From NCBI GenBank assembly GCA_905250025.1, contig CAJNOJ010000020.1, positions 558,001 through 622,000 on the forward strand: DNA of 64,000 nucleotides, read 5' to 3'. The stretch's first letter is position 1; the number at the start of each line of letters is the position of its first letter. The stretch comes from Adineta ricciae. Its lineage: Eukaryota; Rotifera; Eurotatoria; Adinetida; Adinetidae. The translations under genes and the position numbers were made by a program. Below, in pieces: positions 28,718-64,000 of the stretch. Below the pieces are notes generated by a model that made no database searches, was not told the DNA's origin, and saw only the letters and a program-made list of their open reading frames with translations.

Positions 28718-28980
28718 TCTTCAAAATAAGGCAAGAGTTTAGTCAACCATTGAATGCGAAAAAGAAAAAGAAAAAGAACGATTGAAACTTTCGTTCTGTT
28801 TTCGTTTACGAGTGTTATGATACATTTTATGTACATTCATCATACCTGACATCTAGGGATCATGCTTAGCATTCGCTCATTCGGTCGAACGACAAAAAAT
28901 TATTCATGCTGGGCTGATATGAATAGCAACGTCAATTGTTGCTAATCGCAAAACATAATATGTTGTAAATAGTTTGGATT
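28718..28980. promoter_or_regulatory. Divergent promoter region, receptor kinase / GPR155
   Basis: Only 263 bases separate two divergent start codons, so both promoters must lie here. No clear TATA or repeat is recognised. A possible acceptor (TTGTAAATAG) ends 8 bases before the GPR155 ATG. Confidence 0.4.
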
Positions 28981-31731
28981 ATGAATGAAACGATCATAGT
29001 GCCGCTGACTGTTGATAATGAACTATATCCAGCTTTGATTCAATGTTTCTTCATTATCTGCTGTGGCTACATAGCCGGTCAACTGAATCTGTTAACAACT
29101 GCTCATTCCATTGGTTTATCAAGGTATATAAGTAACTTTGCATTACCAGCGGTTATATTCAAGAATCTCGTCGATGTCCAATTTCAAAGTGTTTCATGGC
29201 AATTTCTTACATCTGTTCTGATTAGTAAATCAATCTTGTTTTTAATGACAATTCTTCTGACGTATATTGTTGAACGTCCGAAAAATCTCGCTAGCATGGG
29301 TCATTATGCGATCATGACTACTCAAAGTAATGATTTTGCATTGATTCTACCTATTATTCAAGCAGTTTATAAGCAATCTCATCCGGAATATAGTCGATAC
29401 ATTTACTTAATTGCACCTATCTCACTTGTCTTACTCAATCCGATCGGATTTATCTTGATTGAGACACAGACACGTTTGGATGATCAACGGCGACATCGCG
29501 GAAGTACTTGGTCGTACTTTCAACTGATATCGACTATTGTTGGAAACATCGCTCGAAATCCCGTCGTGATATGTACGTTACTCGGAGTGATATTCAATCA
29601 AATATTCCATCAGCATGTGCCAAGTTTAATCGACGGCGTTCTTACACCGTTAGCTCAATCATTTACAGCCACCGCGCTCTTCTATCTCGGTCTAACAATG
29701 GTCGGAAGACTCAATCGATTGCATGCACGCCTTGTTCTAACAGTATTTCTACTCAGTATGATGAAATTAGTCATCTTCCCGTTGATTTTACGTCAAGCTG
29801 TTTTCTTTCTCGTCAAACCACTGAACGGGAACCTGAGCTATACTTTGGAATATTCGAATTTTGGATTTTTATATGGAACGTCACCAACAGCACCGTCTGT
29901 GATGTTTTATGTTCCTGAATCAATGTTATCCCTACAAGCAATAGCATCGACAGAACTGGTCGTTTCAACTCTACTATCGGGACCTATTATTCTTGTTTCA
30001 GCAAAAATGATCAATTTACGCACATTGAGTACGAAAGTGACTGAATGCTATGACATGTTATTAGCAACAACAGCTTATGATGTTAGTATTCTATCGTTAT
30101 TCTGTACAATTATTGTGTTAATCGGATTCTGTTTACGGCATCGATGGTTTAAAACATCATTTATACATAAATACACATTTATTTTTGTTAGTTTACAAAT
30201 GATTTTATCGATATGGACAATAATTATGCACCATATTAAAGTATTTGCATCGCTTACTATGTCACCTATATTTGATTTAGGTAAAACAATAAGAATTCAA
30301 GTTTTCATTTTGTTCTCTTTCTTTTTTTTTTAGGCACTATATTCTTAGCATTGGCTACGCGAACATGGGCAACAAGTATATCCATCGCGTTAATGTTTAT
30401 CATCTGTCATTCGAATGAATTAGCTCGTCGATGTTCCTGGATGTATCATATATTTGGTTGGATTGTACCCGCATTAGTATCTCTGATCATCTATTTTTGC
30501 TCATTAATCTATCAACCAGAGGAAAATCCGGAATTAATAGGCGCAGGAAAGCTTGGAAAACTCCAAATAATTCTCTCGATTTTATTACTCAATGTATGTG
30601 TGTTGATCAACACGATTAGTCTTCTTCGTATCGCACGGCGGACGTATCAGTTAAGACACGATCTAGCCGATCATCGACCAGAAACTTCTAATGATTCGAA
30701 CTCAATAATGAGTGAAGCTCAAACATTGATCGATGATAATGATGAAGAAATGGACACGCCATTCATTTCTAGAGGTATCTTTTTCTGTTTATCTCATCGG
30801 ATTTTCTTACATATTGTCTTTGAAGAGCCCGAAGAAGTGAAATTTGTTGAAGGTGATGCACAATTATTTCGTCACGGCATCCTTATTGCCTTACTGACAA
30901 TCGATGCTGTCATTGTAAGTGTATTCGATTGAAAAGATGAGATTGTTATTAAATTTTATTGACATAGTGTGTAGCGGTGCTATTGTGGTTAATCATATCG
31001 CGTGATCGTGATGGTATTTATTATGAATTACAGTTCTTAGACACAGTTTTACTTTACGGACAAGTAAATAGTTTGAGTTCGTGTTTTTGCTAGATGAAAG
31101 TCTAATGTTTGTAGGGTATTATTTCTTTTCTTGTCTTTGCATTGGATGCTGACTTGCTTGTGCCGATCTCGCGAAAGTAAAATAGAAAATGAAGAGTAAA
31201 GAAACGAATAGTGACGGTGTGTCGTTTGTATTTAGATTAATGAAAATGTTTTATTGTTGCGGATTCAGTCGAAATTATACACGAAATCAAAACAGAACGG
31301 ATGCAACATTAGACTTTGAATTTCACATTCGACCAGAATTCATCCGTCATTCCAGGTAAGTGAAACTATTTTCAAAACTTTTACAAACATAATCTTTAAA
31401 GAACTAATATCGAATAACATGAATATGTATGTATTTCTATTCTGATTATTGTCCTTTGCTGTTCGATTGATTTTCTATAAATAGTCTCTTGTATTCAATT
31501 GAATAATCATTCGAATTTCTATTTAGTATGAAGCAATCGTCGGAACCAGTGTTTTGTGGAAATGAATTTTGTCAGTGGCTGATAGAACATGATTACATGG
31601 CTAATGAATCAATGGCTCGAGCTTATATACAGCAGATAGAAACAAATCAACAAATTGTTTGTCTCAATCGAAATCAAAACTCTGACGATGTTTACGATCT
31701 TTTAACGAATTGGTATGCTTTTTCGAAATAG
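28981..31731 (+). CDS. GPR155: GPR155/LYCHOS-like lysosomal membrane protein (transporter-like domain plus DEP domain)
   Basis: About seven exons. The N-terminal 300 residues form a transporter fold of the auxin-efflux/PIN type (MNETIIVPLTVDNELYPALI, GQLNLLTTAHSIGLSRYISN, ALPAVIFKNLVDVQF). Further membrane segments follow, including the GPCR-like helices (LGTIFLALATRTWATSI). The last exon (31528-31731) encodes a DEP domain (FCGNEFCQWLIEHDYM...YDLLTNWYAFSK). This architecture is specific to GPR155, known in vertebrates as a lysosomal cholesterol sensor upstream of mTORC1. Exons join in frame: after FDLG at 30280, across an acceptor at 30333, and so on to the DEP exon. The orthology is firm; cholesterol sensing in this animal is inference. 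Confidence 0.92.
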
Positions 31732-34178: not shown

Positions 34179-35402
34179 ATGGGCTCGAAAGTAAGTCGTC
34201 ATCATTTCAAAAATGGTGAGCAATTGAGTAAGAAAATGATCGATGAACTCTGCGAAGAGACAGGGTTTAGTGAAGAAGAACTACTCAACTGGCATACGTA
34301 AGTGCAAATTTGAAGTTATCTTGTGTAATAATGAGTCATGTTGCTTTATTTTAGAAACTTCTACAAGGATTGTCCAGACGGGCGTTTAACTTTGAAACAA
34401 TTCGAACATGAATATTCAAAAATCATGGGTCGACCGACGCAGAAAACAACTGATTATGTCAAACACATGTTCAACGTTTATGATCAAGATAAAAATCAAT
34501 TTATCGATTTTAAGTAAGATGTTCATTGCTGGCAAGCGAAACGAACTCTTCTTTTGTTATTAAGAGAATTTGTCACGGCATTATCAGCTGCGTCAGTGAT
34601 GAATCGTTTGCGTTTAGTTGAGACGATGTTCAGTATGTTCGATTTAGACCACGATGGACGAATAACCAAAGACGAAATGACCAAAATGTTACATACCCTC
34701 GTCGACGTGACAAACTCGAACAAAAAGCGTCAGCAGAATCACTCCAATAACGACAATACCAATCAACAGGCAAATCTACAAAAGCGTATTGATGACGCAT
34801 TCAACGAATTAAACGCCAACGCTGATGATCACATAACAAAAGATGAATTTATCGAATGGTACATGAAAACAGGTTTATTATCTGACGCCAAAGTCACCGG
34901 TATAAATATTCGTGATGCAAGTCGTGTTCAAGAACTCGACAAGAAATCGCGGAAAATCAGAAAGCAACAAGTTGATCCAAGAGATCGTGTCGATGAGTAC
35001 CAGTCGTCGCAAGAAAAACGACATATAACACGTATGACCGAACAAAGACCACCAACGAAGTCAACAACGGATGAAAGTGACGATGATGATGATGATGATG
35101 TCGTGATGGGAGATGATGACAGTTTACGTCAACAGACTTCGTCGGATGATACCGATTCTCATTATTCGAAAGAAAACGAACGTTGGCAACACTTGTTTAA
35201 TTCCGTTCTTGGACAGATTCGCGCGCAACGTGAATACAATCAAGAACAAGAACAAAAAGTCGAATTGAACGGACAAAATCGCATCAGTCATTTCAATTCA
35301 TGGAAAAAATATGGTGAAGAACAAATGAAAATCGAATACTTTCGACAGAGATCGACCGAAGGTGTCACATCACCGTCGGATGTCGTTACAATTCGATTTT
35401 GA
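34179..35402 (+). CDS. EF-hand calcium sensor with N-myristoylation motif and long acidic C-terminal extension
   Basis: Three exons. The start MGSKVSRHHF fits the N-myristoylation consensus (Gly2, Ser6) and is followed by EELLNWHTNFYKDCPDGRLT, the pattern of the neuronal calcium sensor family. EF-hand loops are seen at about residues 80-92 (DQDKNQFIDFKEF) and 115-127 (DLDHDGRITKDEM). A third degenerate one follows (ANADDHITKDEF). The first hand (DCPDGRLTLKQF) is likely inactive, as in NCS proteins. NCS family proteins are near 190 residues. This protein continues for about 175 more, with an Asp run encoded near 35078-35120 and a Gln/Glu-rich tail. The core fold call is firm; the tail is of unknown role. 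Confidence 0.85.
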
Positions 35403-36855: not shown

Positions 36856-39090
36856 CTATGAGCCAAATACATCGAAGAGATCAGTAAATGCCTGTGTGCC
36901 AGGTTGTGGTGGAGCTTGACGGGTCGGTTCCCATGGCATTGCAGATTGCGGTCGATTGACTGCTGGTGCCGCCATTTGACTAAAATCACTTCCACCGAAC
37001 ATATTTGCACCAGGAGTTTTCGAACGGTTAGCCATAGATTTTTTTATTAGTTCATGTGCCGCATTGAAATCCACCGGTCGGAATGGATCCGATTCGTCTA
37101 ATTTCTGATTACCACCACCAGTTGATGCTGCCGAAGCCGAAAAGAATGGATCATCCGCTCGACTAACTCCGAACGGATCGGCTGTCGTTGGAAATGCATT
37201 GAATGTATTATTCGCATTAGCAGGCAAACCAAATGGATCAGCAGACGTGCTCGTCGGTGATGTGACTTGTGATTGTTGTTTTGGAGTAACAACTTTATTA
37301 GCTGTAGTTGGTGAAACTGCTGTTTTAACTGGACTATCAGCCAACTAAGGAAAACAATGGATAATCAATGATGAATGGAGAACAAAATGTGATCCTACCT
37401 GTTTGAATTTTGATGTCAATTCATTGATTGCTGAAAGTGAATCTTTTTGTTCACTCTTCATATATTCTTCAATGAGTGCACGTTGACCTTCGACAACATT
37501 CTGATATCGCTCGAGATCAAGTTTAACTTGATTGAATTGCTGTTGTTTGTTTAAAAGTCGACTTTCAATGGTATTTTTTTCATCACGGATTCTATTTAAT
37601 GTTTGACGAACTTCTTGCTGAGCATCGGTTTCAACGGATAGTTCATTGATCTTTTCTCGTGCCAACTCAATTAAGCGATTTTCCTCTTTGATTTGCTGTT
37701 CGATATCATGAATATCTTTGATTGCCTTTTCCTTACGGTTTTGTATATCGCTCAGTTCGCTCTGCTTTTCGGTCATACGTTGTTGACGCTCAACTAGCGT
37801 TGCATTGACTGTCCCGCATCGAAGTTCAAGGGATGCGAGTTCAGCACGTTTATCTTTGACCGCTTGTTGTTTTTCATTGAATTGGATTTCGCATAGACTT
37901 TTCTCGCTGGTTAACGCATTGACTTCGCTCAATAATCGTTGCAATTCAGCGTTGTCACTGTCATTAACTGAGAATGTCTTCGGCCGAAGCGATGGTGGAA
38001 TCATATCATGTGAAAGTTCCATAGGAATTTGGTAGTTCGGTGCTGAAAATGATCAAGAAAAAGAAGTTATTTTCGTATAAGAAAGAAACGAACCTTGCAA
38101 TTTCAGTTGAATGAAGTGCGATGCTAATGCAAACTGTTCAGGATTGAGTTTACCCGTTTGACCGATATCGCACAGATTCCATATATGCGACAGTACAAAA
38201 TTAGGTAGGCCACTTGTTAAAAATGTTTGAAAAACATCATTGCCTGACAGGAATCCATCTTTATCTAAGTCAAGTTGATGAAATAGCACATCGAATTTTT
38301 GCTTGTCTTCGAAACTAACAATCCATTGATCGTCCGTTCGTTTCGATGGTGAGATTTGCGAGGGTGCTAACGATGCTAATGCACCTCCTGTTGACATGAT
38401 ATTCGGTAGACTAATATTGATGTCAACACCCGATACTCGACGCATGCGTATCGGCATTAGATTTGTTGGTAATCGGTCGGGTAATTCGCGAATAGTTGCA
38501 GTTTTTACACCATGAATAAGAAACATTGCAATTGCGAATTCATTTCGATCTAATGCGCCATCTTCATCAATGTCACTTAAGTCCCAAATCTTATGCAATT
38601 GATCAGCTGATAGACCAGACTTGAGAAATATGGGCTTGACAGATGTACCTGGAAGTTTACTCATTGTTCCACTTAGTTTCTCGAATGCGACATCAAATGT
38701 ACAACGAGCTGTAGGTCCAATGGTCCACATATCTGCCACGGCAAGACTTATGCTTTGTGGAATGTCACCACCTAAGTTCGGCGGGACAATATCTTTCGTT
38801 ATATTTGAGTAATCATTGAAATCGAGGTTATTTTGTGCGAGAGCAATAAGTTTCAATCCAATATAAAATCCTCGCCGATCCAAATAACCTCGACCGTGCG
38901 GATCAGCTAAATTCCAAATAATTTTCAAATGTTCAGGTTTTAAATGTGCCCGTTGAAAGTAATTATTCGCTTCGATGGAACTCACGATACCATGATCGTG
39001 AGGGTCGGACTGTGCGAAATGATATTCATACAAAGCATATTGCGATTTGCCGACTACGGTATCTAAATCGATCGTGTCAAATTCAGACAT
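36856..39090 (-). CDS. EPS15: EPS15-like endocytic adaptor
   Basis: Three exons. Three EH domains fill residues 1 to about 345 (SQYALYEYHFAQSDPHDHGI, DIDEDGALDRNEFAIAMFLI and LDLDKDGFLSGNDVF). A coiled coil follows (LLSEVNALTSEKSLCEIQFN to ALIEEYMKSEQ). The tail has DPF motifs (SADPFGL, TADPFGV, DDPFFS, SDPFRP), which in this family bind AP-2. The order EH-EH-EH, coiled coil, DPF is the EPS15/EPS15L1 architecture. There are no ubiquitin-interacting motifs at the C-terminus, unlike the long vertebrate forms. The ATG directly follows a TTTTTTTCAG acceptor. It lies 161 bases downstream of the DNAAF2 stop and may be the last gene of the same transcription unit. Confidence 0.93.
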
Positions 39091-39092
39091 CT
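39091..39092 (-). promoter_or_regulatory. Probable trans-splice acceptor
   Basis: Minus-strand GTTGTTTCTTTTTTTCAG abuts the EPS15 ATG. No AATAAA is seen between the DNAAF2 stop and this site. Confidence 0.6.
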
Positions 39093-39251
39093 GAAAAAAA
39101 GAAACAACATAAAAGTGAATGTTTTTTTTTCTTTTTTCTTTTAAACACCACCAAAGAAATGTCAGTGTAGGAGGAAATGTAATAGTATATACAGAGACAG
39201 AAAGAAAAACACTAGATAACCATGCACATCACGAAAGAAAATTTGACGAAA

Positions 39252-41982
39252 CTAATTGTCTAATTCGAAAATAAGAGGATTAGTAAATTGAACAGCTGAT
39301 TTAGTTGTTGAGGCATTTCCATCTTCACTCTTCGACGATGCGATCCCGCTGGCTTGCCGAGCGATAACATCTTGAAATTCCACGGGATTTTTATATTCAT
39401 TCGATTGATTGGCTGACTTGTTTTTCTCCGATGTCGAATCATCTGGATCACTCGACTGAGAGTTGAGAGAGTCTTGCCGTTTACGCTTTTTCAATTTACG
39501 TTGTTGATGCGACGATAATTTTCTCATACCTGAAACAGGTCCACCTGGCTTAAATGTTTTTCTTGATACTTGATTGTTGAATGTCACATGTTTGACATTC
39601 AGCGACGAACTTGGTGTTGTACATAAACTACTACTACCACCGCTATCTGGCGATGTTACAATACTATTATTTTCATTACTACTAGTCAAATCATCAACAG
39701 TTGAACATGCTTCGAAAACAGGTTCTTCGTGTTGATTATCATTGTTCGAATTATCAAAATGTTCACTGAATGATGCTGAGTACGAACGATATTTTGTTGA
39801 ATTTTTCAGTATACCCTAGAAAAACGAAGGAAACTTAGTCGAAATGACTGAAAAGATATACTTTTAGTTTGAATTCTCCGTTTGATGTTATTCCCAGCTC
39901 AACTTGAGATTCTGACATATGGCGACGATAGACTGTTGGACGCGTAATACTTTTAGGCATTTCAGGAAGTTTGTCTTCCTCCTTTTCTTCATCGGTATTT
40001 GATTGAAGTGATATAGACGAAATTTCATTCGATAATTTATCGTTACTATCCGTTTTAGTTAACGAATTCTTTCGTTTTTGCTTGGCTATCTTTTTCGCTT
40101 GTTTCTTTGTTAATTGCTTCTGCTGGTCGCCATTCAACGAAGTAGACGAGTCCGATCTGGACATGAGAAAGTCGTCCTTGGTCATTGCTTGAGTAGATGA
40201 AGTGTTGGCTTTGTCAGGAGCGGGTGTATTCGATACAGTTGAATAATGCGTCTAAAACATGAAAAAAATATTTATCGATAATGAAAACAAATACCGTGCA
40301 CAGCTGGTAATGTTAGACATGATTCAATATTTGCATGCATGACTTATGAGGGGTGTTTATTTACCTTCATATCGTCGCGATTAACACTGCTTTGAAAATG
40401 ATCGATTTGTTTATTGTTGGAAGTCTTTTTCAAAACAACTAAAACATTGTCATTATTGAATGTTATGCTCGAAGAACTTTCGGCTGTGTCGAAGGTCATT
40501 GGTTCGTCGAAATCAAGACAAAGTTGATGTTGAAGTGGATAAAACCCAGAACCTAACGAGGATAACTGAATGATAACGTGTTGACCATCATTGTCTAGTT
40601 TGAAACTTGATTCATCAACATTTTTCACGTAAATAACAATTGCTAGATGTCCGGAACCTTGTTTGTATTCAAATGGAATTGATGTATAAACTACATTCGC
40701 AGGTTTCTCAATCGCTGCTGCAGGTTCTGCCGTTGGAATAGGTGAGTTGACTTCAGCAGTCTCTTCATTCGTCTCTTCTGGAGGAGTATTTGTTTGCATT
40801 TCAATGATCGTCGAAATTTCTTTGATAACAGCTAATACAACGAGTAACTTCCGCTGTTTTTTGTCAAAACGTGCATGACTATCACTCTCGCGAACTGGAT
40901 AAGATAATGGCAAATCAAGTGAATATTTTGGTGAATCACAGTGAAGTTTAAGTGAACGTTCACATACATCTAGATCGACATTACTCGATGATGCGCATAA
41001 TGGTAGATCGATTTCCACGAGTAATTCTTTCGGACGCATTGAATGTACTTGTGGAACGAGAGAATTTGTGCAATCTTGCATGTCGAACTCACCGCGATGA
41101 ACTATACGATATGTCGGAATCGTAAAACCATTTTCATCTGTACGAGGTGTGTTCGTCTCAGGCGGAGTGATACTGGCTGATGGAGGAGAACTGTTATTTG
41201 TTGAACGATTATGACTCGAAAGGATAACTTTATGGTTTTGAGCAGAAGATAGTGCCTTGTCGATGATTTCATCGCTAGAAAATGTTATTAATCGATGAAA
41301 TGAGATAGCAAATAGTTGCAAACACTTACGTTTTATCTTTTAATTGTTTTTCTGTTTCTTCCACAAAATTCTCTTGCTTTTTCCTAAGAATTGTTGCTTT
41401 TGGTATCCCTTTGAACTTCATTTTCAACCGTTTCACATTCTTTCGATCCAATTTACAATTGTAATTCTTTTCGACTGAGTCTAATGCTGATTCGTCGATC
41501 ATATTCATGAATTTCTCGTTTGTTTCACCCATTCGATAGGTATCCGGAGAGAAAATCACATCGTAAACAGTACATGATTTCGATTCATGATCGAGATCTT
41601 CGTGTGGACCAGCTAGACAATGTGGTAAACTCCACTGTGCACCTTTTTTTCCATTCGACCCATCGGTTTTTGCATAGGAAGGTTTATCTACATGTTCATT
41701 CATTGCAATGTTAATAAAACATTTGGTCTTATCACCAATTGTTGTTTTTAGTACATGACCTGCGTTCGGATGTATGAATGTCACATCCGAGCCACGTTGT
41801 TGCTCGGCAGCGCGAATTTCTTGCTCGTATAGCTCGCGATTCTTTGGATCATTGAGTTCTTCGGCGTATTGAATGAACAATTTGCGAAATTCTGCGTTTT
41901 GAAAAGCGTCCGAAAAGCGTTTCATTTCATCACCAGTTAAATTTAAATCTTTTAATTTATCTTGAAAGGTACTTGCAGTCAT
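39252..41982 (-). CDS. DNAAF2: Dynein assembly factor DNAAF2 (Kintoun), PIH1 domain protein
   Basis: Four exons joined across introns of 50-120 bases. The N-terminus (FQDKLKDLNLTGDEMKRFSD) and PIH1 domain (QWSLPHCLAGPHEDLDHESK, CTVYDVIFSPDTY, FKGIPKATILRKK) match Kintoun. A CS-like domain follows (RIVHRGEFDMQDC, KELLVEIDLPLCASSSNVDL, YSLDLPLSYPVRE). The C-terminal third is Ser/Lys-rich low complexity with a conserved-looking HVTFNNQVS. DNAAF2 acts with HSP90/HSP70 in the cytoplasm to preassemble axonemal dynein arms. The ATG at 41980-41982 is chosen because a splice acceptor (ATTGTTTCAG) sits just 9 bases upstream. METTL9 ends only 35 bases before this start. Confidence 0.92.
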
Positions 41983-41991
41983 AATTGTTAT

Positions 41992-41993
41992 CT
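41992..41993 (-). promoter_or_regulatory. Probable trans-splice acceptor between METTL9 and DNAAF2
   Basis: The METTL9 stop is followed by only 24 bases and then CATTGTTTCAG, leaving no room for a normal promoter or cis-intron. This is the strongest operon junction in the window. Confidence 0.7.
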
Positions 41994-42017
41994 GAAACAA
42001 TGAAAATGTACAATTTA

Positions 42018-42982
42018 TCATATTGCTAACACAAAGACATAATCAAATAGGAAATAATAACTCCGTTCCATATCGCCTTCACATAAATATGGTACACGCG
42101 TTAATTTTTCTAGATGAAAACCTGATGGCTGAATGACGTTCAGCAGAAAACTGTTAATTTGCTCCTCGGGTAGTTCACCTTCAATTTGTAATGATTCATT
42201 CGGCCGGTGATGACTGTTATATTCAAAATAGGGTTTGAACGGAAGAACAAGACTAAGAATTACACGACCGATCTGAGGATTTAGATGATCGCGAATCTGC
42301 TTGAGTAATTGCACAGGATTTTCACAACGATCAAGGACATTTAAACAAGTAATAACATCAAAGATATGATCTCCCCAATGGTTCGTATCGAGCACTGTGT
42401 AACCATAAGTTGATAAACGCCAACGCATAGTTGGAGATAGTTCAGTAACGTAGACTTTGTTAAAACTATTCGCCATGCGTTCAGTTATTGATCCATCGCC
42501 CGCACCGATGTCGAGTAAGGTGGCGAATGGTGATTTTCCATCTGATTCGATATCGAGTAAAGTTTTAAACTGCGCACTTGAGTAAACAAACATACGACCA
42601 CGGCCGAGTAGACCATTTGCTAAGAATAAATACCATAAACTTTTATCAGTTCGACGAAAAACGAAAACTTACCTGATGTTCGTGTCATAAACAATGTTAA
42701 CAAAGACGCAAATAGGGTATGAATCATTTGTAAGAACACATTTTCAGATTTCTCTTCACTTTGTTTGAGAAAGAATTGGGTGTCTTCATCTTCATTCAAT
42801 TGATAGAAACGTTCGCGATATTCATCATGCAATAAATCACTTCGGGATAAGCGATACCATTTCGTTCGATCAATGCTTTTTAAACATCGATCATTTTCAA
42901 TCTTGATCAACGCAGCTCTTGCCCATGACGAACGCACCAATGGATATGATGATTGGTGACAATTGGTACAGTATTCATTCAT
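42018..42982 (-). CDS. METTL9: METTL9, protein-histidine methyltransferase
   Basis: Two exons. The first (42982 to about 42675) encodes MNEYCTNCHQSSYPLVRSSW through the helical FLQMIHTLFASLLTLFMTRT. The second encodes the SAM-binding motif LLDIGAGDGSITERM, YVTELSPTMRWRL, VITCLNVLDRCENPVQLLKQ, RVILSLVLPFKPY and YLCEGDMERSYY. These match the DREV/METTL9 family closely in order. METTL9 makes 1-methylhistidine at alternating HxH motifs in several proteins. Length near 300 residues fits the family. The sequence NGLLGRG joins the exons, as in the vertebrate protein. Confidence 0.94.
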
Positions 42983-50051: not shown

Positions 50052-53000
50052 TTATTTTAAAATATATTCAACATGCATATTGAGATACACCATCCTAGAA
50101 CATGAGAAAGCAAATTGTCTTGACAGATGAATTGATTTCGAAAGCACACAGTTCTTACCAGTAGATAATATTAAATACAATGAAGGCAACAGGAAACAGA
50201 ACTGCTGAAACAAGATCGACCTTAATTAAACAAGCAAGTGAAAGGATGAAAATATGATTTTTCACTCACAAATTGTGCACTGTCACGAACAGGTTTAGCA
50301 GCTTTTGCTAACTGTGCTGGTTGTGACAAGACAACCTGTGGTGTTTGTGAAGGTGCACTAGTATTTGACATCGTAGAATAATGAGTGTGTGAAGTGGTGG
50401 TGGTGGTAGTTCCACCACCTAGATTTCTCTCAGCACCACTTGTTTTATGAACAAGTGTTTCCATTGTTTCAGCGTTACTATGATGTGCATCATCTTTCTT
50501 GTAGAAATGCACTTGAGCAAGACGATTGCCAATAACCTTGAAGACGAATATGAATAAAAAATGAAAATTCGAAAAGGACAACAACTAGTATGAGCTAATA
50601 TAGATGTAGAATGATAATGATAATGATAATATTGTGAAAATAATATATATGTACGTATATATATATATATGAATGTGTACGTGTATATGTGAGAAAAATA
50701 TAAGAAGAAGCTTTAGGGAAAATAGTCTAGTGACCACTACGTAAGAAAAAAAAATTCAATTGATTTACTCTCTCAGCAGCAAAAGATGAACCATTCTGTA
50801 GTTTTTGTATCAGAGTGACTTTTGGTGGTCTGTCTGGATTTTTCCTCTATAACATATTGTCGAAATATTTGTATCATACATATAGGCTAGATGGTCAAAG
50901 CAATGACATGGCAAGATGAAGAACTTACTTCTTTGGAGAATCGAACTTGTTGTTTGAGTTCGCCTTTCCGAGCAATAACATTAACAAGTGCATATTCAAG
51001 CAGGCCAGCAAAAACGAAAACAAGACATGCTGACATCCAGACATCGATGGCTTTTATATATGACACACGTGGCAATTGTGATCGAATACCTAAACATGAG
51101 AAAAACTTGGTTACATCGAGTTCGCCTTTTGGCTTTCGACGCGGGGCGATGAGGGTCAAAGTAATAAGCAAGGTCTTTAGGCAGCAAGGTGTGTTCATAT
51201 TCGGAGAGGAAATAAAACATGTCTTTCTGCCTGAAACCCATAAAAATAAGCAATGAAGCATTGTAGCTGTGTATTTGATGAACAGAAGAAGAAAGGAAGC
51301 AGTGAGCACGGTGTGAACAGGTGTAAAATGAATAGAAACGATTTGTTTTCATGACGAGTATTTGAATTTTGTGTTTTTTTTTAATAAGTTTTTCGTTACC
51401 TGAGCTTTGAGTAGTAACTGTAAGTACAGTTAAAAGACCGACTGAAATTCTCGCTGGAACCTGAATATAGTGAGTAGAAATACAAGTGTGCTAGTCGACT
51501 TGGATTGTGGGACCTTACCGACTTATGATCGATCCAGAATGAAACAAAAGAAAGAATCACAATAAGCATTGATGGAATATAAACTTGAACTATAGAAATG
51601 TACCTTGCTCGAATGCATACTCGCACAAAACAAAGTTCACTAAACTCACCAAGATAATAACCAAATAAACGTTTCAAATGAAGAACAACGAGAAGGCATG
51701 TGAAACTGCCTAGAACATCGATCGTTTAAGTGAATAAACGAGTATGAGATTTGAAAAAACTTTCTTCATTTGTGTATACTTTGCTGCTAACTCAGTCTAG
51801 GCAATAATTGAAGTGCATGGGAAGTAGTTGTGTGGTGAATTTCTCGAAAGGAAAAGTACAAACAAACGGACAAAGAGTGCAAGCAGAAAATGCGCGCGCG
51901 TGTGTGTTGATGAGCTTGGACTACTCAAGATAAAGGTTCAAGGAAGAGAGAGAGAGAGATAGTTAAAAAACAATAAGAAAGAGAAGTTTTTTTTGTACCT
52001 TCAGCCTTTGTTGTTACAGTAACAATGCTGAGTAGACTCAATAATGTTCGTGCAGGATGAGATTTATAGTCGATCCAGAATGCGATAAATGATAGAGCAA
52101 CAATTAACGTTGATGGTAAATAAAGCTGTTGTAAATATAAGTTGATGTTGCGTTGGAGAGCGAGATGTACTTCGATACAAGCGAATTTTCCTACGAGTCA
52201 GTCGAGGAGAAAAGCAAACTTATTACATAAGAAAAGACATATCATGAAAAGTAACTCAAATGAAGAAAGTTTTTTTTTTCTTTTGCCTTTGTAAATCAAA
52301 TTGACAAACAAAGAAATAGAAGCAAACCTGTTGCTGTCGTTCGATTACAGTATCTTGCTTCATGATTACTCAAAACAAAATCGGGCATTTCAAGATCTTC
52401 GTTGACTCGAATAGCACTGACATTTTGAGCTTCTTCCCAGAAAAAAGCCAAATCATTTGTAGCAAAGCCATCTAGAGATAAACAAATTATTTGTCAAGTA
52501 CTATTAACATTCGCTTTTTAGTACGTACAACTGCCTATGTTAACTACACATGTCTGGTTATCAAGTGGGAACTTTTGTAATTTCATTTGACAATCAAGTT
52601 TAAGTAGAAGTCTACGAGAACGAATCAAGAAGCAATCGATTGATAATTGAAACATGAAAAGACAACCAACCTTTGACTATAGAGGACTTTGCCATCGCGA
52701 TGAATACGAATCAACCGATTGGGCACCGTTATGTCGCTTCGTTTACCTTCTTTGGCATTCCGAAAGAATGAATCCGGTACCCAAATACGGTCAATCAGCG
52801 AATAATGTAAAGTGATTTGTGGTGATTTGGTCGCCCAATCTGTTCCAGTGTAATTCAACCTTGGATCGTACCACGACTGGCGAAAAATGAGATCTGTATT
52901 ATAATCCTGCAAGTTAATCATGAAGAAATTTCGTTGACATTGTTATGCTAACCTTACCATATTAACTTCATTAATCGCTGATATGGTGTTAATATGGATC

Positions 53001-53248
53001 GTCATTGTTACATTACATGCTTCTATAAAGAATAAGACAAAGTAATGAATGTAGAGATCGTTTGTAAGAAAGGATTTACTTTGTTGATCGAAGAACGGTC
53101 GAATACGTCGATCGTAACGACTTGAATTGATCAGTGTGTCAAGAAATTCTTCGACTGTATTTATAGTTGCATCATGCCGTAAATAATTTGTACTAGAAAC
53201 AAGCGTAAAAAGGGTTATCAAGCACTGTAAATCCAAATAGGAATGCAT
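50052..53248 (-). CDS. Anion-type Cys-loop receptor (glycine/glutamate-gated chloride channel class) with duplicated pore exons
   Basis: Multi-exon minus-strand gene. The local start encodes [19 protein letters not shown] (possible signal peptide). The ligand-binding domain follows ([51 protein letters not shown]). The Cys-loop is intact with 13 residues between cysteines ([15 protein letters not shown]). A second Cys pair ([13 protein letters not shown]) marks the GlyR/GluCl subclass. The pore segment exists in two versions (51400-51709 and 51999-52190). Common exons then give M3 ([20 protein letters not shown]), an M3-M4 loop, M4 ([20 protein letters not shown]) and a short tail ending HVEYILK. 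The PAR motif before M2 predicts anion selectivity. Ligand not determined. Candidate alternative first exons lie at 54856-54968 and 57020-57222. Confidence 0.9.
51400..51709 (-). other. Pore cassette B (three exons: pre-M1, M1, M2)
   Basis: Exons 51650-51709, 51519-51589 and 51400-51460 (60+71+61 = 192 bases) encode [20 protein letters not shown], then [20 protein letters not shown], then [20 protein letters not shown]. This is the canonical GluCl/GlyR sequence. It enters and leaves in the same phase as cassette A. Confidence 0.88.
51999..52190 (-). other. Pore cassette A (single exon: pre-M1, M1, M2)
   Basis: One 192-base exon encodes [20 protein letters not shown], then [20 protein letters not shown], then [20 protein letters not shown]. 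It has a proper acceptor (CGACTGACTCGTAG) and donor (GTACAA). It keeps the second-disulfide Cys and the PAR motif but differs at most M2 pore-facing positions from cassette B. Using both would duplicate the pore, so one must be chosen. Confidence 0.85.
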
Positions 53249-54855
53249 GTCTAGTTGACGATAAACGCGAGATGATGGCTGATGGATCGACTTTTAATAA
53301 TGATGCGTAGCATCAACCAACAGAAAATGAATAATGTAAATAACTGGCAAACACGAAGAATCTTAACCAAAAATGCAAGAAGAACAGCAACATCGTCTTG
53401 TCTCATACATAGATGATGTCCGATGTTCTTGATACGTGAATATTAATACCGATGACATTTTCAACGAAGAGAATATAAATAAATAGTTGACAAACGTATG
53501 GTTGTGAAATTTAATCTATTTTTCTAGATGTTTTTTTGATGAAAAGAAACAGACAGAAGTTTTCGACGCTGTTTATCAGAGACATCAATACGCAACCTCG
53601 AAGAGAGACGACATCATCGAACAAGCTGGAGCCAACAGTAGTAGTGGGCACAAACAACTGACAAGTGGTGAAATAAAAGAGAGAGAGAGAGAGACGAAGA
53701 AAAGCGGAAGAGAAGGAACAGTCGGCGAAGAAACGACGTCTTCTATTTGTCGTCGGACAAGAACGCTAATAGTAGAAGATCTGTCTAGGGTACTTGGCTT
53801 TGATGAAATATTAAAAAAAAAGTAATTGAACAACAAATTAACTCTCGATTTGACATGTAAAGCAATGCTCTCCTAGTGTCTTTGAATAAAGCAAATTTTT
53901 ATTCTACTCAATCAATCTATCTTATACATTATGTTTCCGATTCAACTCAAGGCCAATGAACAGGCAGCAGCATCAGTAGTGCTTCACATACTCTCATACA
54001 CTTCCTATTGAAACAAGTTCTTTTTAATCGAATATGGACTTGAACCATATTAATTAAATGTAGACACGGCAGGAAAAGAAAAGAATGCTTTATGGAAAAT
54101 TGAACAGGAATTTTTCAAATGTAATGCGCTCAGTCAGTAGGAAATTGCTTACATGAAACTTTCTCTCCTGATACGAACTAATCGATCCACTGACGAGAAG
54201 CAAAGGAGCAATCAATTTCACTACCACCCACATCTTTGTCGATCTTTCCATAGATTTCTTTATTATTTATGAAGTATGTTCATGCAAACAACTAATATTA
54301 ACTCTCTTCCTATTTGTATATACGGGCAATTCGTATTCATTCTGGTTGTTACTTATTAGTTCCACTTATCAATGCACTATTACTATCTTGGTATCTAGAG
54401 AGATAGACAATGAAGTTTGATAATCTCATCTTCGCCGAAAAATCATTTAACTGTCATACTATCTCTTCTCTATATTAGTTTAGAAAAAAACATTATAAAG
54501 TAGAAAGACAATGACAGGAAAATCCCTCCGGCAAGGTGTTTTTTTTTCTATGTAGATCAATTTACTCTCGACTGATGAGGGACGACAACAAAGCGTCTAT
54601 ACATGTATGATCTGAATAGGGGAAAGCGCCCATCAGATACGTATTGACAAATTTGAAAGCAGTTAATTAGCAAGTTTTCCACTGTTGTTACTATGATATA
54701 CACTCGAAAAGCACACAAACAAGATTTTATGCCTTAAAACGATTTTCTCTTATGCACTCGACATTTCCGCTTTTCGCTCTATTCTCGGGAGCTTGTTATT
54801 TACAAAATTTGAACTAGAAAAATTCAAAGGTAGAAGGCAAATTAGTGAGACCCAC

Positions 54856-54968
54856 CTTTCCACGGGCTCTTCGTGGGTTTTGCTCGCCCACATCTCTTGA
54901 GATGCGACTGGTTGATATAATAGACAAGTGTTCAAGACAAGTAAAATCAAAATGTTGAGAAGAATCAT
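54856..54968 (-). CDS. Candidate alternative first exon with signal peptide (anion-channel gene)
   Basis: Starts MILLNILILLVLNTCLLYQP, a good signal peptide, followed by VASQEMWASKTHEEPVE and a GTGGGT donor at 54855. It ends in phase 2 and would join the acceptor at 53192 to read ...[15 protein letters not shown] in the receptor frame. It could instead belong to another small secreted-protein gene. Confidence 0.4.
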
Positions 54969-57384: not shown

Positions 57385-57412
57385 AAGGGAAGAGAGAGAG
57401 AGAGGGAGGGAG
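57385..57412. repeat. AG-rich microsatellite
   Basis: AG dinucleotides passing into GGGAGG, within a longer purine-rich stretch to about 57490. Confidence 0.85.
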
Positions 57413-59424
57413 ACGCATACACAGAGAGAATGAGAGAAAGAAAAATGAGAAGGAAAAACTGAGAGAGATCAGAAGAAAAAGGAAAAGAACAGAGACGAGC
57501 CGTAACGATATATCACGCATTACGTGGTAGATTTGTTATTTTTTATTTTCAGCTTTTTGTTCATTTCCACATTTCTATTCTCTCGGTTTTCTCTAGCACT
57601 CTCTTTCTCCTGTCTACATTTTTCTCCCTAGATATGTCGCGACTCATGTAGTAGAAAAGAAATAATCTTCCTTCTTCTGCTTCTTCATCTTCATCATCTT
57701 CCCCTTTTTTCTGTTGCGCCTTCTGCTATCAACGCTGTTAATGATAATAGGCGGATGGTGGTGATCCGTCTTTCTTATATAAATATAAACGTCTAGTGTC
57801 ATCAAAGTATATCTTGTCTTTCTTTCTTCGTTATCGCATCGATGAGTTCATATTCTTTTACTTATTATTAATTATTCGGACAAAATATTCCATCACACGT
57901 TGGCTTTTTTATGCTCTGCCTCTCTCTCTCTCTCTTCCTTCATCCTTATCTTATTCATCATCTTAGCAAATGAATACATGAGAGATTATATTTACCATTT
58001 AATTTCCTCTCTTAATCTCGACGTAATCAATAACACAAGGGAAATTTGTCCTATTCACCAAAGTATAACAAACAAAAACCTATTGAAATAATATTCGAAA
58101 AAGAAAGATCATGACTGTCCCTCGAAAGTCAATGTAAACATTACTATGATTAATTGAAGGAGATATATCTCTTTCGGAAGGAAAAAGACAAAAAGCCGAT
58201 TGTAGAGATGAATAACAAAAGGTTTTACTCTTCGATAAGCGATTGATAACTTTGGCATGTTGCCGTGGTGTTTTTCATGAAAAGATAATTAATCATCGTC
58301 GTAATGCTAAGAAAAACGAAAAACGACAAATTTATGACACTAATTCATATTGAATATGACAGAAAATGTGTTAAAGTAAGAAAAAGAAATCATTCCTAAG
58401 TCTTTGATCAAAGGACTGACGAAGAGTGTTGTGCAGCATTGCTCTGCGGGGAACGCGTCAGATAATTTCATTGCGAGAACAACGTGTGAAAAAAAGAAAT
58501 CGCTTTCATTTCATTGCCGCATCATATCTCAACGATCGAAGTCAATCGTTTGTTCCGTTTCGCTGTTGCTCGTGCCTGTTGAGTTCAACGGAAATCAATA
58601 GTCGTTGCAACAGATTGAGAAGAAGCAGAGAGTTCGGATTGTTGCAATTGAAATGATAAGACGTTTTCTTCTTCTTTACAGTCAATGACAATTATATCTC
58701 GTCGAACTATGCCGTTCCAAGAAAACTTTTTTTTTTTTCATTTACCATGTTAATCATTCAGTTGAGTTGTAATTTACTAGTCGATCCCTTAGGGACTACA
58801 AACATCAAACATAGTTCGAGTGGACGATTAACATATGATTATCTCCATTCGAATGAATGTTCTAAGTATGTAATAGACAATCTTGATGTAAAGAGAAAGT
58901 CTTGTCGAGATGTTCACAAATAACTTTCACAATCATTCTAATCGAGTAGAAATTTCTATCGAAATATAACGACCTTCGCGAAACGATCATCAACCATTCT
59001 TTCTTCTCCGAACAATTTGTTGTGTCGTTCGTATGCAATCAATTGGAAGACACATCTGGTTAGTTTCAATTTCAAAGACAAACTACTGGCCAAGCTGTTT
59101 CATCTAACTTTCTCGGGTATTGACATTGAAAAGCAAGTTATATCCGGTGCTGATAATAATATTGTACTACGTTCATGTAAATAGAACAAGACTAATCTTA
59201 TCCGATGTAATCTTTCATCTCCGAACTAATGTAATCCCATATTCAAATGATATCCTGTCGATAGTATCTTTAACGAAGGAGAATTCGAAGTTTCCAGATG
59301 TGAACATATTGAATCAGTTGTTTGTTTTAGGAATATTTAGCTAAGCATTTTTCAGTCAAGTTAAAAGAGAGTAGCATTCGAATTGAATATACAATATCAC
59401 AAAAAGAAAAGAAAACGAGATCAG

Positions 59425-61935
59425 TTAGTTTTGATGTTGTTGCTCGGAGGAGTCAGTAGAGGTGGCAGTCGCATCATTATGTGTCGGTGCATGAACAGTT
59501 TGTTTTTTTATCTGCATTCGGTAGACATACGTATCCTCAGTGGATTCAACTTGACCAGAATTTAGATCGAATGATCGACCTTTTGTTGCTAATGGCGATG
59601 CAGATGGTGCAGGACTCCACCATGACATAAGGTCTAGATAAAAAAAAAATTAACTAGATGAAAGGATTCTAATCGATGAAATCTTACTTGACACTAATGG
59701 CAACTGGCGTAGAAGGCCATCCTGAGCAAGTAGTTGCAGGTTTTCATCCTCGAGATCTTTTTGAGCTTTGACAATACCTTCTTTGATTTTTTCGGCCATA
59801 TCTTCGATGTATTTCAAGGAGGTTTCAATTTCCTTTCCAGCATGGGCGATTTTCTGTAACAAAATCTCCAGATCTTCACGTTTGCGGATCATACCTAAAC
59901 GCAAGTAGAGCATTGAATCCAATTCATCTGAGCCGCCGCCTAGTGAAAATGCCGAATCATTGCTTTGTAATTGCCGTGCTAGTTCCGATTGAATACGATT
60001 GACTTCATACATCGATGTTTCATTCATATCAGCCCGGTTGATTGTACTTGGAATATATCGAACAGCGCCAATACCTGCCCAATTTGGTATGGGAATGGCG
60101 ACCAAGTTTTCATGTTTTGCAATCGATGTTGATAGATTGACACGTGCTGCGATGGTTGCGAGAAGAATGTCAGTGAAGCGTTGAAGATCGTCGAGAAATG
60201 TTAGCATGTCATCCTGATCAATATTATCAACAAGATGTTCTAATGGTGCGAAGCGAAGTACATGGGCGGGAAGTTGATTCTTTGATTTGACACTTTGAAA
60301 ATGAATACTTTTAAGTAATTCTAAATTCATCTTCGAATATTGTTGAGAGAGTTTATCGAAAAGCCAGAGAGTTAAAAGGTCGAGGTAACCAATGAAATCG
60401 TCATTGTTTTCACACTAAAAATACATAACCGAGATAATATTGTGCTCATTGTTTTCTCTTTCAAATCGATAAATAGGAAACAACTGTCTCGTGAAAATGA
60501 GTTCTAATTGAGTAATTCTATTGTCATTCATTGCACTTCAACATCGTTTCGGAATGGAAAGAATAGAACAAAAATGAGTGTCTAATTTAACAGAAACATA
60601 CACAAGGCTATTGCCATTCCGAAACGACATTGGACTGTTATTTCCTCAAATCAGTGGCAAGGTCTTACTTCGCCGAATAAACCATCGGGTTGAAAACGAA
60701 AAACAACGACCGATCGCGGTAAACCATTGTCTAGCGCGTCGTCTGAGCAAATACGTGAATATGTATTGTATTCTTTTTCACATTCATCATTCAGTATTCG
60801 TATATGTTTTGTTTGTTTCAAACGCGTTAACAATAAGTCTGCCAGTTCGAATGATAACTTCATATGATGGAGAAGATTTTCATTTGAACAACGTTGACTA
60901 ATCGACCAAACGCTAAGAAAACTGATCGATGGACTATGGAGAATAAATTCATCGAGTGGATGGACTTTATTTGACGAATCATTGTCTTCGGCTTGTTTTT
61001 CATTGTTCAATGGTCGAAGAAAACATGTTAAATAAGGGAGATTTTGTATACCTAACAATTTCATTATATCTATTGTTAAACTATCACACATGATGCTAAC
61101 GTTGTCTTTCAATACTGGTAGTAATGCTAATGATCCTAGAAGATCGCCGATAACATGCACCCAAACGTCATATTGTTCGCAAAGAGCTTTGATCTTCTTC
61201 AGATCATCGCATCGACCTAAGAATGGTGATCCTGAAAGTAGAAGACAGCATACCGATCAAATGTGTTCTCCTGCAAATGAAATTTACCTGCATTGGCGAT
61301 GACCATGAAAGGATAAGATAAAGTATCATTTGCATCGCGTTTGATCAGTTCTTCTAATTGTTGAAGGTCGATCATATCATCATGTGAATTTCGGTTTTGG
61401 ACATGTTCGAATTTGATATTGGATATCGACGATGTTAAATCGAATTTCAAATTCGGCTCGAAATCCGTTGCGATATAAATAATCGCTTTTTTATATTGAT
61501 CAGTTTTCAATGCATAGCGAATGACGCGCTGAAATGCTTCGGAATAATACGTTGAACAAAGAATGGTCTGACTATGAATATGAAAGAACTTTTCGCACCA
61601 TTGAAGAATTTCGTTCTGATATTTTGGTAAAACCGATGTTTTGACATGATACGGAAGTGTGTCGAAGAAAGCGGCTAACTGAAATAAGACGAAGCAAATG
61701 CGTGAAAAAGATTTGTTTATGTTTTGTTTCTAGTTACCACTGCGACATCGCCAACACATTCTAAATATCGATTCCAAACAAGATGGACACATTGCCGAGC
61801 TTCTTCATCTTCATGGAGATAAGATAAACAATGGGACATAAAGTCAGTTTTCAGTCGATTGTTCAATTCAACGATTTGTTCTTCATTATCAACTGACAAA
61901 GTTTTATTTTCCATCTCGGCTTGTTCGGATGTCAT
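59425..61935 (-). CDS. PDXDC1: PDXDC1-like pyridoxal-dependent decarboxylase domain protein
   Basis: About six exons. Exon 1 starts MTSEQAEMENKTLSVDNEEQ directly after a splice acceptor. The fold-type I decarboxylase-like domain follows: SYPFMVIANAG, DVWVHVIGDLLGSLALLPVL, CDSLTIDIMKLLG, SISFLSVWSISQRC, RSVVVFRFQPD. A C-terminal region (GGGSDELDSMLYLRLGMIRK, then KEIETSLKYIEDMAEKIKEG) also matches PDXDC1 in order. The SxHK motif that carries the PLP lysine in active group II decarboxylases is not seen, as in vertebrate PDXDC1, so catalysis is doubtful. An intron near 60416-60665 (about 250 bases) is longer than the rest. The tail is Ser/Thr/His-rich. Confidence 0.85.
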
Positions 61936-62264: not shown

Positions 62265-64000
62265 TTAATTTATTAAGGGAAGATTTTCGAGCACATATCG
62301 GCCATTCTTAAATAATATCAATTTGATTTGATGATATTGTCGAAGACTATCCCGATGGCCAATACTGATGAGAGTCAAGTTTTTTTCGATCAAATAATTG
62401 TACATTTTCGTTTCCATCTGTGCATCAAGTGACGAGGTGATTTCATCAAGAAAAATAAGACTAAGGTTCGATGAATCAGCCGAAAGACGAAGAATCAATC
62501 GTAAAAAAGATAGACGTTGTAATTCACCGGGCGATAAGATATCTTGCCAAGGATATTTTGGACACACAAATACACTGCATTCTACACTATCGAGAATATG
62601 AGAAAGATTCCAGTCATGAAGGAGTTGTTCAATTTCTGTCTGACGCGCGATCAGTGGGACGTTCTCCACATTCGGATATTCAAGTTCATCGTGAATGGAT
62701 TGATTGGTGAAATACGGACGTTGTGGAAGTAAAAAGGCACGAGATGGGTTGTAAGAAAAATCACCATGGATGTTTACCGGCCATATGGAGTGGAGAATAC
62801 GGAAAAGGGAGGTTTTTCCAACTCCACTATCACCTTAAACGAGACTTTAACGTTTGAAATCAATTCTCTTCAAGTTCATACCTGTGATGAGCAATCGTTG
62901 GCCTTGATATAGAATTAAATTCAAATTTTTCATAAGAACATGTTTAGGTTTGTTTGGAATCGAATACGAAAGGTTTTTTATCGAAAGAATCTCATTCTGT
63001 TGATTGATCGGATTGATGGATTTCTCTGCCCATGTTGTATCGATATTTTTCATAAACTCAACAAATGTTTGCACACGATGTGTATTCGCAGCGATGACTG
63101 TGACGCGATCAGTTAAATCATTCAGTTGACTAAAACGGTATATCAAATACATAATCATAAACGACGTTTTACTAATCTTATCCACTAAAGCCGCCGGGGA
63201 CAAATTATCGTAAAAATGAAAGACAAAGATCACTAATGCTAATAGAAGATAACTTAAAATACTTCCGATATAATCGAATAGATTCATGGATAAATTAAGG
63301 GAAAGTTCTTGGAAATTTCGGCGGTAAAGAATTGGTGTAAGACTTTGTAGAAAATAATTATCGAATCGTTTGTGTTCAAATGCTCCGCCATTGTAAAATG
63401 CAATCGATTCATTATATGTTCGCACTTGAGTGTGAAGAAAACGGAAAGTACCTTCGAAAATATTTTGAGAGAAGATTGTTCGAGACACGGCTGATAAAAA
63501 GATTTTGTTGATCGCTGTCCAAATCACAAAGTAGAGCACGATAACTAATGGACCATAGTAACCTGTTACTTCCCATGTGCGATATGTGTAGTAGACAATA
63601 GTAAATGGAGAGATAAGAACGATTGGAAGAATAACAGATAGAGATCGGCATAGAGCATCAGCATCTTGAGTTATACGTTGATCGGGATTATCAATCAATG
63701 GCTTCGTTGTGGATAATAGACGAGGAGTAGTCGGAGAAATACCATCAACAGATTCGTCATCATTGTCATCGATATCAGTACTGAAAAGAAAAGAAATAGT
63801 TCGATTGGAGATTTCATATTCAGTATAGACACATCTTTGTTTTCGATCGGTGGAATTCTTACGTTTGTACTGTCTGATTTTCATAGACGCTTGCTTGATC
63901 ATGATCCGATCGATTGTGGTTCTGTTGTGTTGTATTCAATAAATGATAATATCGTTGTTTAGTGAAATAAATGGAATGTAGATAAAGAACAAGTCTCATT
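62265..64000 (-). CDS. ABCD4: ABCD4-like ABC transporter (3' part; start lies beyond the right edge)
   Basis: Three exons are visible. The membrane domain has DNPDQRITQDADALCRSLSV, ISPFTIVYYTYRTWEVTGYY, FEGTFRFLHTQVRTYNESIA and FDYIGSILSYLLLALVIFVF, a close match to ABCD4. The nucleotide-binding domain has Walker A GDSGVGKTS across an exon junction, signature LSPGELQRL, Walker B SLIFLDE, and the switch His in ISIGHRD. ABCD4 is a half-transporter that moves cobalamin out of lysosomes with LMBD1. Between the TM2-like YFTKQRYYHLLN and DNPDQR there is an extra polar, acidic linker of about 50 residues (DIDDNDDESVDG). The N-terminal 100 or so residues are missing from the window. Confidence 0.9.

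What the first reader, a model, noticed from the sequence alone, without database searches (positions are those of the whole stretch)
51400..52190. Two interchangeable pore cassettes in one anion-channel gene
The Cys-loop receptor gene carries two tandem versions of the pre-M1/M1/M2 segment. Cassette A is one exon of 192 bases. Cassette B is three exons also totalling 192 bases. Both begin after the same phase-1 junction and end in phase 1, and both rejoin [10 protein letters not shown]. Including both would give two pores in a row, so mutually exclusive splicing is the simple reading. The M2 helices differ strongly ([13 protein letters not shown] against [14 protein letters not shown]) while the PAR selectivity motif stays. 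Alternative exons in ligand-binding or loop parts of such receptors are known in invertebrates; a swap of the whole M1-M2 unit would change conductance or drug sensitivity. The different intron content suggests an old duplication.
Basis: partly seen in the sequence, partly recalled or inferred. Interest (0 to 1): 0.85.

Follow-up and report, generated by a model that had tools for sequence, protein, structure and literature searches.

The report
One channel gene, two alternative pores
A gene for a neurotransmitter-gated chloride-type channel carries two tandem, interchangeable versions of the segment that builds the pore, and the sequence around them holds complementary stretches that could act as an RNA switch choosing one version at a time.

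Summary
Observation confirmed. A complete Cys-loop receptor gene model lies on the minus strand (53248..50052). Cassette A (52190-51999, one exon) and cassette B (51709-51650, 51589-51519, 51460-51400) each total 192 nt, enter and leave in phase 1, and give 499-aa proteins. Both match Neur_chan_memb and glycine-receptor M1-M2. A looks like constrained coding sequence: 33 of 63 interior residues equal B's, 23 of those 33 by different codons.

Including both cassettes, or neither, keeps frame, so NMD cannot enforce choice.

New here: intron element 51772-51754 has a perfect 19-bp complement upstream of A (52275-52257), the longest perfect inverted repeat found within 700 nt in the window, and an 11-bp complement inside exon B1 (51685-51675). 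These pairings cannot coexist: one loops out A, the other encloses B1's acceptor. It is the window's only non-simple triad at 11 nt (2 of 100 random windows have one).

No transcripts or relatives were available, so exclusivity and the switch are inferred. TM2-exon and pore swaps are known (insect alpha6 exon 8; nematode avr-14). Verdict: real; new variant of a known kind.

The parts
52328..52471 (-). Shared exon E5, end of ligand-binding domain with first loop-C cysteine (RYC); donor into both cassettes
   Evidence: gene model
51999..52190 (-). Cassette A: single 192-nt exon, pre-M1, M1, M2 (GKFACIEV...[19 protein letters not shown])
51650..51709 (-). Cassette B exon B1 (60 nt), pre-M1 to start of M1
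51519..51589 (-). Cassette B exon B2 (71 nt), M1
51400..51460 (-). Cassette B exon B3 (61 nt), PAR motif and M2
50929..51089 (-). Shared exon E7: M2-M3 loop and M3, acceptor for both cassettes
52257..52275 (-). I1 arm: 19-nt perfect complement of the I2 element, in the intron before cassette A
51754..51772 (-). I2 element (candidate docking site) in the intron between the cassettes
51675..51685 (-). B1 arm: 11-nt stretch of exon B1, complementary to the same I2 element (competing pairing)
50052..53248 (-). Whole receptor gene model, 499-aa isoforms

Best explanation
The gene encodes an anion-type Cys-loop receptor subunit whose pre-M1/M1/M2 segment comes from either cassette A or cassette B, spliced between the same two shared exons, so that one ligand-binding domain and one M3-M4 half are joined to either of two pores. 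The confidence below is for this part. Proposed control (inferred, about 0.32 of that): the intron element at 51772-51754 is a docking site with two partners that exclude each other. Paired with the 19-nt arm upstream of A, it loops out A and leaves about 100 nt (52 + 44, outside the stem) between the E5 donor and the B1 acceptor, so B is used. Paired with exon B1, it encloses the B1 acceptor in a hairpin, so A is spliced on to the M3 exon. Both cassettes keep the anion PAR motif and the cysteine that would complete the loop-C disulfide, so both should make anion channels. A has bulky Leu at 2', Val at 9', Lys at 14' and Glu at 16' (numbering recalled), so conductance, gating or channel-blocker sensitivity should differ.
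For: Equal lengths and phases, GT-AG sites, full-length open isoforms. Both cassettes match Pfam and glycine receptors. Against GlyR alpha3, A keeps four residues that B has lost (K2, I6, E7, L51) and B keeps fifteen that A has lost, so A is not simply a decayed copy of B. Codon-position differences 29/16/39; 33 of 63 residues identical, 23 of those 33 by different codons. In simulated divergence, an A lineage drifting neutrally for all, three quarters, half or a quarter of the changes carries a stop in 79-93% of runs and reaches 33 identities without a stop in 0, 0, 0 (two settings) and 2 of 300 runs; with both lineages constrained it does so in 43 of 300 (omega 0.1), 8 of 300 (0.2) and 0 of 300 (0.3). 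The introns flanking the cassettes are 137, 289 and 310 nt; eight of the other ten are 49-64 nt. A 19-bp perfect complement joins the introns on either side of A: 0 of 1,000 dinucleotide shuffles (max 14), 0 of 20,000 order-2 Markov pairs (max 16), longest of 13 perfect inverted repeats of 12 nt or more within 700 nt in the window. A triad X / complement of X / X within 700 nt with X of 11 nt, simple repeats excluded, occurs once in the window, here; 2 of 100 random windows hold one anywhere.
Against: No RNA evidence at all. No relative was found in the collections that could be searched, so neither conservation of A nor covariation of the stems could be tested. A has lost more conserved positions than B (15 against 4) and its Pfam score is lower. 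The simulation is crude, and a weakly constrained pair (omega 0.3) fails it as neutral ones do, 0 of 300. Six of the 19 bp are an A/T run. The B1 pairing alone is moderate: chance of an 11-nt match is 0.0015 in 60 nt but 0.026 over the E5-E7 region (the figure that counts the search) and 0.074 over the gene; the B1 stretch is coding and may be conserved for that reason. Predicted pairing swings with the length folded (19-bp stem 0.00 to 1.0). A pairing between the middle and downstream introns that would loop out B was sought and not found (8 nt, 235 of 300 shuffles as good; element against I3, 230 of 300 random as good). The switch does not explain why A should not splice to B2, which would also keep frame.
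Confidence: 0.72

Rival explanations
1. Both cassettes are alternatives, as in the best explanation, but choice is by trans factors or splice-site strength; the complementary arms are incidental, for example a local template-switch mutation that left an inverted copy (that mutation class is recalled). This shares the two-cassette part and competes only with the switch.
For: Perfect 19-bp identity can also mean recent origin. A (CT) tract lies about 40 nt after the A donor (51959), but such runs occur 11 times in the window on both strands. Donor matches to the U1 consensus are unremarkable (5 of 9 for A, 7 of 9 for B3; range of the 13 donors 5-7).
Against: The arms sit on either side of A and the same element also matches B1; the triad is the only non-simple one of 11 nt within 700 nt in the window.
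Confidence: 0.4
2. Cassette A is a relic of an exon duplication, skipped in most or all transcripts; B is the only working pore.
For: B is nearer to known receptors (42 of 65 identical to GlyR alpha3, against 31 of 65 for A) and scores higher in Pfam. The 19-bp stem would favour skipping A.
Against: A is open, in phase, with both splice sites, and conserves Cys, PAR and FWID. Simulated neutral drift for half or more of the divergence never matched it (0 of 300 at each of four settings; 2 of 300 at a quarter). Recent loss of use cannot be excluded.
Confidence: 0.15
3. Both cassettes are included together, or both skipped, in a functional transcript.
For: All four combinations stay in frame. Simultaneous inclusion of duplicated exons is reported for silkworm alpha6 exon 3 (PMC1919356, section 6 read).
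Against: Inclusion of both would put two M1-M2 units in tandem and should wreck the four-helix topology; skipping both removes the pore (inference from family knowledge).
Confidence: 0.04
4. Assembly artefact: a segment of a paralogous or allelic copy was inserted into this locus.
For: The window's genome is not held, so read support cannot be checked.
Against: The two cassettes are only 56% identical in DNA, A is bounded by its own splice sites in phase, and tblastn shows no duplicated flanking exon in the window.
Confidence: 0.03

Closest known systems
Insect nicotinic receptor alpha6, mutually exclusive exons 8a/8b/8c
   Same: Cys-loop receptor in which tandem alternative exons swap part of the pore (TM2 and TM2-TM3 loop; PMC8505678, passages; PMC6393475, passages)
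   Different: Cation-channel family; alternatives are single exons covering TM2 and the following loop, whereas here the unit is pre-M1/M1/M2 and one alternative is three exons
Nematode GluCl gene avr-14 (AVR-14A/B)
   Same: One ligand-binding domain spliced to two different channel sequences (PMC3144221, passages)
   Different: There the sequence diverges from the channel onwards, intracellular domain included; here M3, loop and M4 are shared
C. elegans unc-49 (recalled; two searches gave no paper or listings only)
   Same: Shared N-terminus with alternative pore-bearing halves (recalled)
   Different: Whole C-terminal halves, not an internal cassette (recalled)
Docking-site/selector competing RNA structures (Dscam, 14-3-3 zeta, Mhc, srp; PMC6071210, passages and section 16)
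   Same: One element with alternative complementary partners that cannot pair at once; looping out of one variant
   Different: Dockers described there lie left or right of the cluster; here the candidate docker lies between the cassettes and one partner is inside an alternative exon
Vertebrate glycine receptor alpha subunits and C. elegans GluCl alpha (PDB)
   Same: Best sequence matches of the whole protein (352 and 304 bits; 60 of 187 matches were listed)
   Different: The loop-C stretch differs (CNRTTATG here against CTKHYNTG), so the GlyR loop-C aromatic (role recalled) is missing

Membership tests
Cys-loop (pentameric ligand-gated) receptor subunit | Ligand-binding domain and four-helix membrane domain | tested here: met
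   PF02931 155 and 154 bits, PF02932 117 (A) and 139 (B) bits
Cys-loop (pentameric ligand-gated) receptor subunit | Cys-loop of 13 residues between two cysteines | tested here: met
   [15 protein letters not shown] in the translation
Anion-selective Cys-loop receptor (GlyR/GABA-A/GluCl class) | Pro-Ala-Arg before M2 | tested here: met
   HPAR in A, VPAR in B; alignments. Ion selectivity itself not measured
Anion-selective Cys-loop receptor, GlyR/GluCl branch | Second cysteine pair across loop C, completed inside the cassette | tested here: met
   RYC in E5; FAC in A and FTC in B at the aligned GlyR cysteine
Glycine or glutamate receptor (ligand) | Ligand gating by glycine or glutamate | not testable with these tools
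   Best matches are GlyR then GluCl; the GlyR loop-C aromatic is missing; no assay
Mutually exclusive tandem exons | Homologous, adjacent, same phase, interchangeable length | tested here: met
   192 and 192 nt, phase 1 in and out, 35 of 65 residues identical
Mutually exclusive tandem exons | One and only one variant in each transcript | not testable with these tools
   No RNA data, no genome held
Docking-selector RNA switch | One element complementary to two or more competing partners placed to include or exclude variants | tested here: met
   19 bp with I1 and 11 bp with B1; the B1 half is only moderately beyond chance
Docking-selector RNA switch | Conserved or covarying pairing, effect on splicing | not testable with these tools
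   No relatives found
Steric-hindrance type exclusivity | Intron between variants too short to splice | tested here: not met
   289 nt, against 49-64 nt for eight other introns of the gene model
U2/U12 incompatibility type exclusivity | Mixed major and minor introns | tested here: not met
   Flanking introns are GT-AG and no donor looks U12-like; read by eye, no model was run

The most novel reading that the evidence does not exclude
A single intronic element between two pore cassettes chooses the pore of a ligand-gated channel by pairing either with an upstream intron arm (selecting B) or with coding sequence of the rival exon itself (selecting A): a bistable RNA switch that accounts for both halves of mutual exclusion and exchanges one exon for a block of three, giving two pores behind one binding site.
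Probability: 0.25. Interest if true: 0.75.

Novelty: new variant of a known kind. Interest (0 to 1): 0.57.

Why it matters
It would show that an animal can exchange the whole M1-M2 unit of an anion channel while keeping binding site, M3, loop and M4, giving natural isoforms that isolate what the pore contributes. A docker that pairs with an alternative exon, placed between the variants, would be a simple answer to how both unwanted junctions are suppressed, which the unidirectional docking-selector model leaves open (PMC6071210, section 16).

Tried and rejected
Own genome: none held. Relatives in viral contigs (40 pattern matches) and prokaryote genome contigs (pattern matches): none encodes a relative. 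Rfam at gathering thresholds, whole window: no match. A docking pair between the middle and downstream introns: not better than chance. I1-I3 pairing: 10 nt, 132 of 1,000 shuffles as good. CU-tract as splicing-repressor site: 11 such runs in the window. RNAduplex energy over whole introns was a blunt test (as good in shuffles: I1-I2 10 of 200, I1-I3 26 of 200, I2-I3 57 of 200); the exact-complement tests replaced it. A triad of 9 nt is not unusual (4 observed, mean 2.29 in random windows) and of 10 nt is weak (2 overlapping, both this site; 16 of 100 random windows have one); only the 11-nt triad is rare. The triad statistic was defined after seeing the pairing. dS between cassettes could not be estimated (NG86 saturated, YN00 and LWL85 failed). 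Searches looked for pore or exon swaps in such receptors or in tandem duplicated exons (one search found no paper), for docking-selector control, for bdelloid splicing and rotifer GluCl (listings only, nothing on this gene seen in them). I saw no identical case in these; the library lacks most subscription papers.

Full report
What is there. The region was read on the minus strand, with ORFs listed on both strands, and the gene was rebuilt on the minus strand. Fourteen exon blocks give a complete Cys-loop receptor: an N-terminal exon with a hydrophobic start (53248-53080), ligand-binding exons, either cassette A (52190-51999) or cassette B (51709-51650, 51589-51519, 51460-51400), an M3 exon (51089-50929), loop exons and M4 (to 50052). 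One loop exon (50846-50769, 78 nt) is tentative. Isoform A and isoform B are each 499 aa. Pfam finds both domains in both isoforms, and the best solved relatives are glycine receptors (352 bits) and then GluCl alpha (304 bits) among the 60 of 187 matches listed.

Both cassettes are real coding units. Cassette A alone matches GlyR M1-M2 at 4.1e-15 and cassette B at 3.3e-23, both along all 65 residues. A and B share 35 of 65 residues; B shares 42 with GlyR alpha3 and A shares 31. A keeps four consensus residues that B lost (K2, I6, E7 of the pre-M1 strand and L51 in M2), B keeps fifteen that A lost, so A is the more diverged but not simply a worn copy of B. Silent positions are saturated: of 33 interior residues that are identical, 23 use different codons. 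Simulations (300 runs each) asked for 33 identities and no stop at the observed DNA divergence: A lineage neutral for all of it 0, three quarters 0, half 0 (two settings), a quarter 2; both lineages constrained at omega 0.1 43, at 0.2 8, at 0.3 0. Neutral settings left a stop in A in 79-93% of runs. The model is simple (no rate variation among sites, started from B); it says that the pair is strongly constrained, more so than the average of the tightest setting (29.4 identities). The openness of A alone proves little (11% of intron-like sequence).

Pore differences. Both keep PAR, the M1 proline, FWID and the cysteine that pairs with the one in the shared loop-C exon. By the usual M2 numbering (recalled), B has Ser 2', Leu 6', Leu 9', Gln 14', Ser 16', and A has Leu 2', Leu 6', Val 9', Lys 14', Glu 16'. 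A large residue at 2' and loss of the 9' leucine should change conductance, gating and channel-blocker binding; this is inference.

Why exclusive, and how. Four outcomes are possible and all stay in frame, so decay of wrong products by NMD cannot enforce choice. The introns that touch the cassettes are 137, 289 and 310 nt; of the other ten in the gene model (two of them inside cassette B) eight are 49-64, one is 82 and one is 232. A middle intron of 289 nt argues against crowding, and nothing suggests a minor spliceosome; all sites are GT-AG with ordinary strength.

The new observation is in the introns. AAAAAACTTTCTTCATTTG at 52275-52257 (before A) is the exact complement of 51772-51754 (between A and B). 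No shuffle of 1,000 and no order-2 Markov pair of 20,000 gives 19 (maxima 14 and 16). Among 13 perfect inverted repeats in the window with arms of at least 12 nt and seeds starting within 700 nt of each other, it is the longest; none of 100 random windows had a non-simple one of 19 nt, while 17 had one of 15 nt or more. Paired, it loops out A and leaves 52 + 44 nt outside the stem between the E5 donor and the B1 acceptor, instead of 618. The same middle element is complementary over 11 nt to 51685-51675 in exon B1, enclosing the B1 acceptor. Since one element cannot pair twice, the two states exclude each other and predict B and A respectively. TTCTTCATTTG occurs four times in the window on both strands, three of them here (shuffles mean 0.14, 0 of 100 with four), and the 11-nt triad occurs nowhere else in the window (simple repeats excluded); 2 of 100 random windows contain one. 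The triad test was framed after the pairing was seen. The chance of the B1 match alone is 0.0015 for 60 nt but 0.026 for the region and 0.074 for the gene, so this half is only moderately supported. Folding of 1,543 nt of pre-mRNA puts the best structure, which holds the B1 hairpin, 1.1 kcal/mol below the best one with the 19-bp stem, and the favoured state changes with the length folded: the 19-bp stem ranges from 0.00 to 1.0 and the B1 hairpin from 0.0 to 0.96 (stem also). Such numbers on 0.6-1.7 kb are soft; they show that both states are possible, not which one forms.

What is shown and what is inferred. Shown: gene model, two homologous phase-matched cassettes, signs of selection on A, complementary elements beyond chance. 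Inferred: that transcripts use one cassette at a time, that the elements control the choice, that the pores differ in function. Not testable here: RNA, relatives, organism. Searches of viral and prokaryote collections found no relative, as expected for an animal gene.

Comparison with the known. Mutually exclusive TM2 exons are known in insect nAChR alpha6 (PMC8505678 and PMC6393475, passages; PMC1919356, abstract and sections 6 and 13). Splicing of one ligand-binding domain to two channel sequences is known for avr-14 (PMC3144221, passages). Ion channels are enriched among genes with tandem duplicated exon swaps (PMC9741552, passages). Docking-selector control is established in insects (PMC6071210, passages and section 16). 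What differs here is the unit swapped (pre-M1 to M2 only), one exon against three, and a candidate docker between the variants with a partner in coding sequence. Hence a new variant of a known kind.

Odds. 0.72 is for alternative cassettes used one at a time: about 0.32 with the RNA switch and 0.4 without it (first rival).

Noticed in passing
54968..54856 and 54233..54153, minus strand: Two short ORFs starting with signal-peptide-like stretches (MILLNILILLVLNTCLLYQPVASQ..., MWVVVKLIAPLLLVSGSISS...), each running into a GT donor, upstream of the receptor gene on the same strand; possible alternative first exons or parts of another gene.
   Followed up: no
50846..50769, minus strand: A 78-nt in-frame exon candidate in the M3-M4 loop followed by a 232-nt intron; may be an optional cassette exon.
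   Followed up: partly
52257..52275 and 51754..51772: Inverted repeats flanking cassette A could also favour back-splicing into a circular RNA of exon A (inference).
   Followed up: no
57388..57404 and 57922..57938: Second-longest perfect inverted repeat of the window within 700 nt, made largely of (GA)n/(CT)n simple repeats.
   Followed up: no
window 24586-25494(-), 28969-30330(+), 38056-39228(-), 40347-42668(-), 59653-60414(-), 62850-63935(-): Neighbouring genes by Pfam, from 20 of the 34 ORFs of 130 aa or more: protein kinase (PF07714), membrane transporter (PF03547), EH-domain protein, PIH1 domains and DREV methyltransferase, PDXDC1-like, ABC transporter membrane region; also EF-hand at 34518-35399(+) and MSP domain at 1156-1584(+).
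   Followed up: partly
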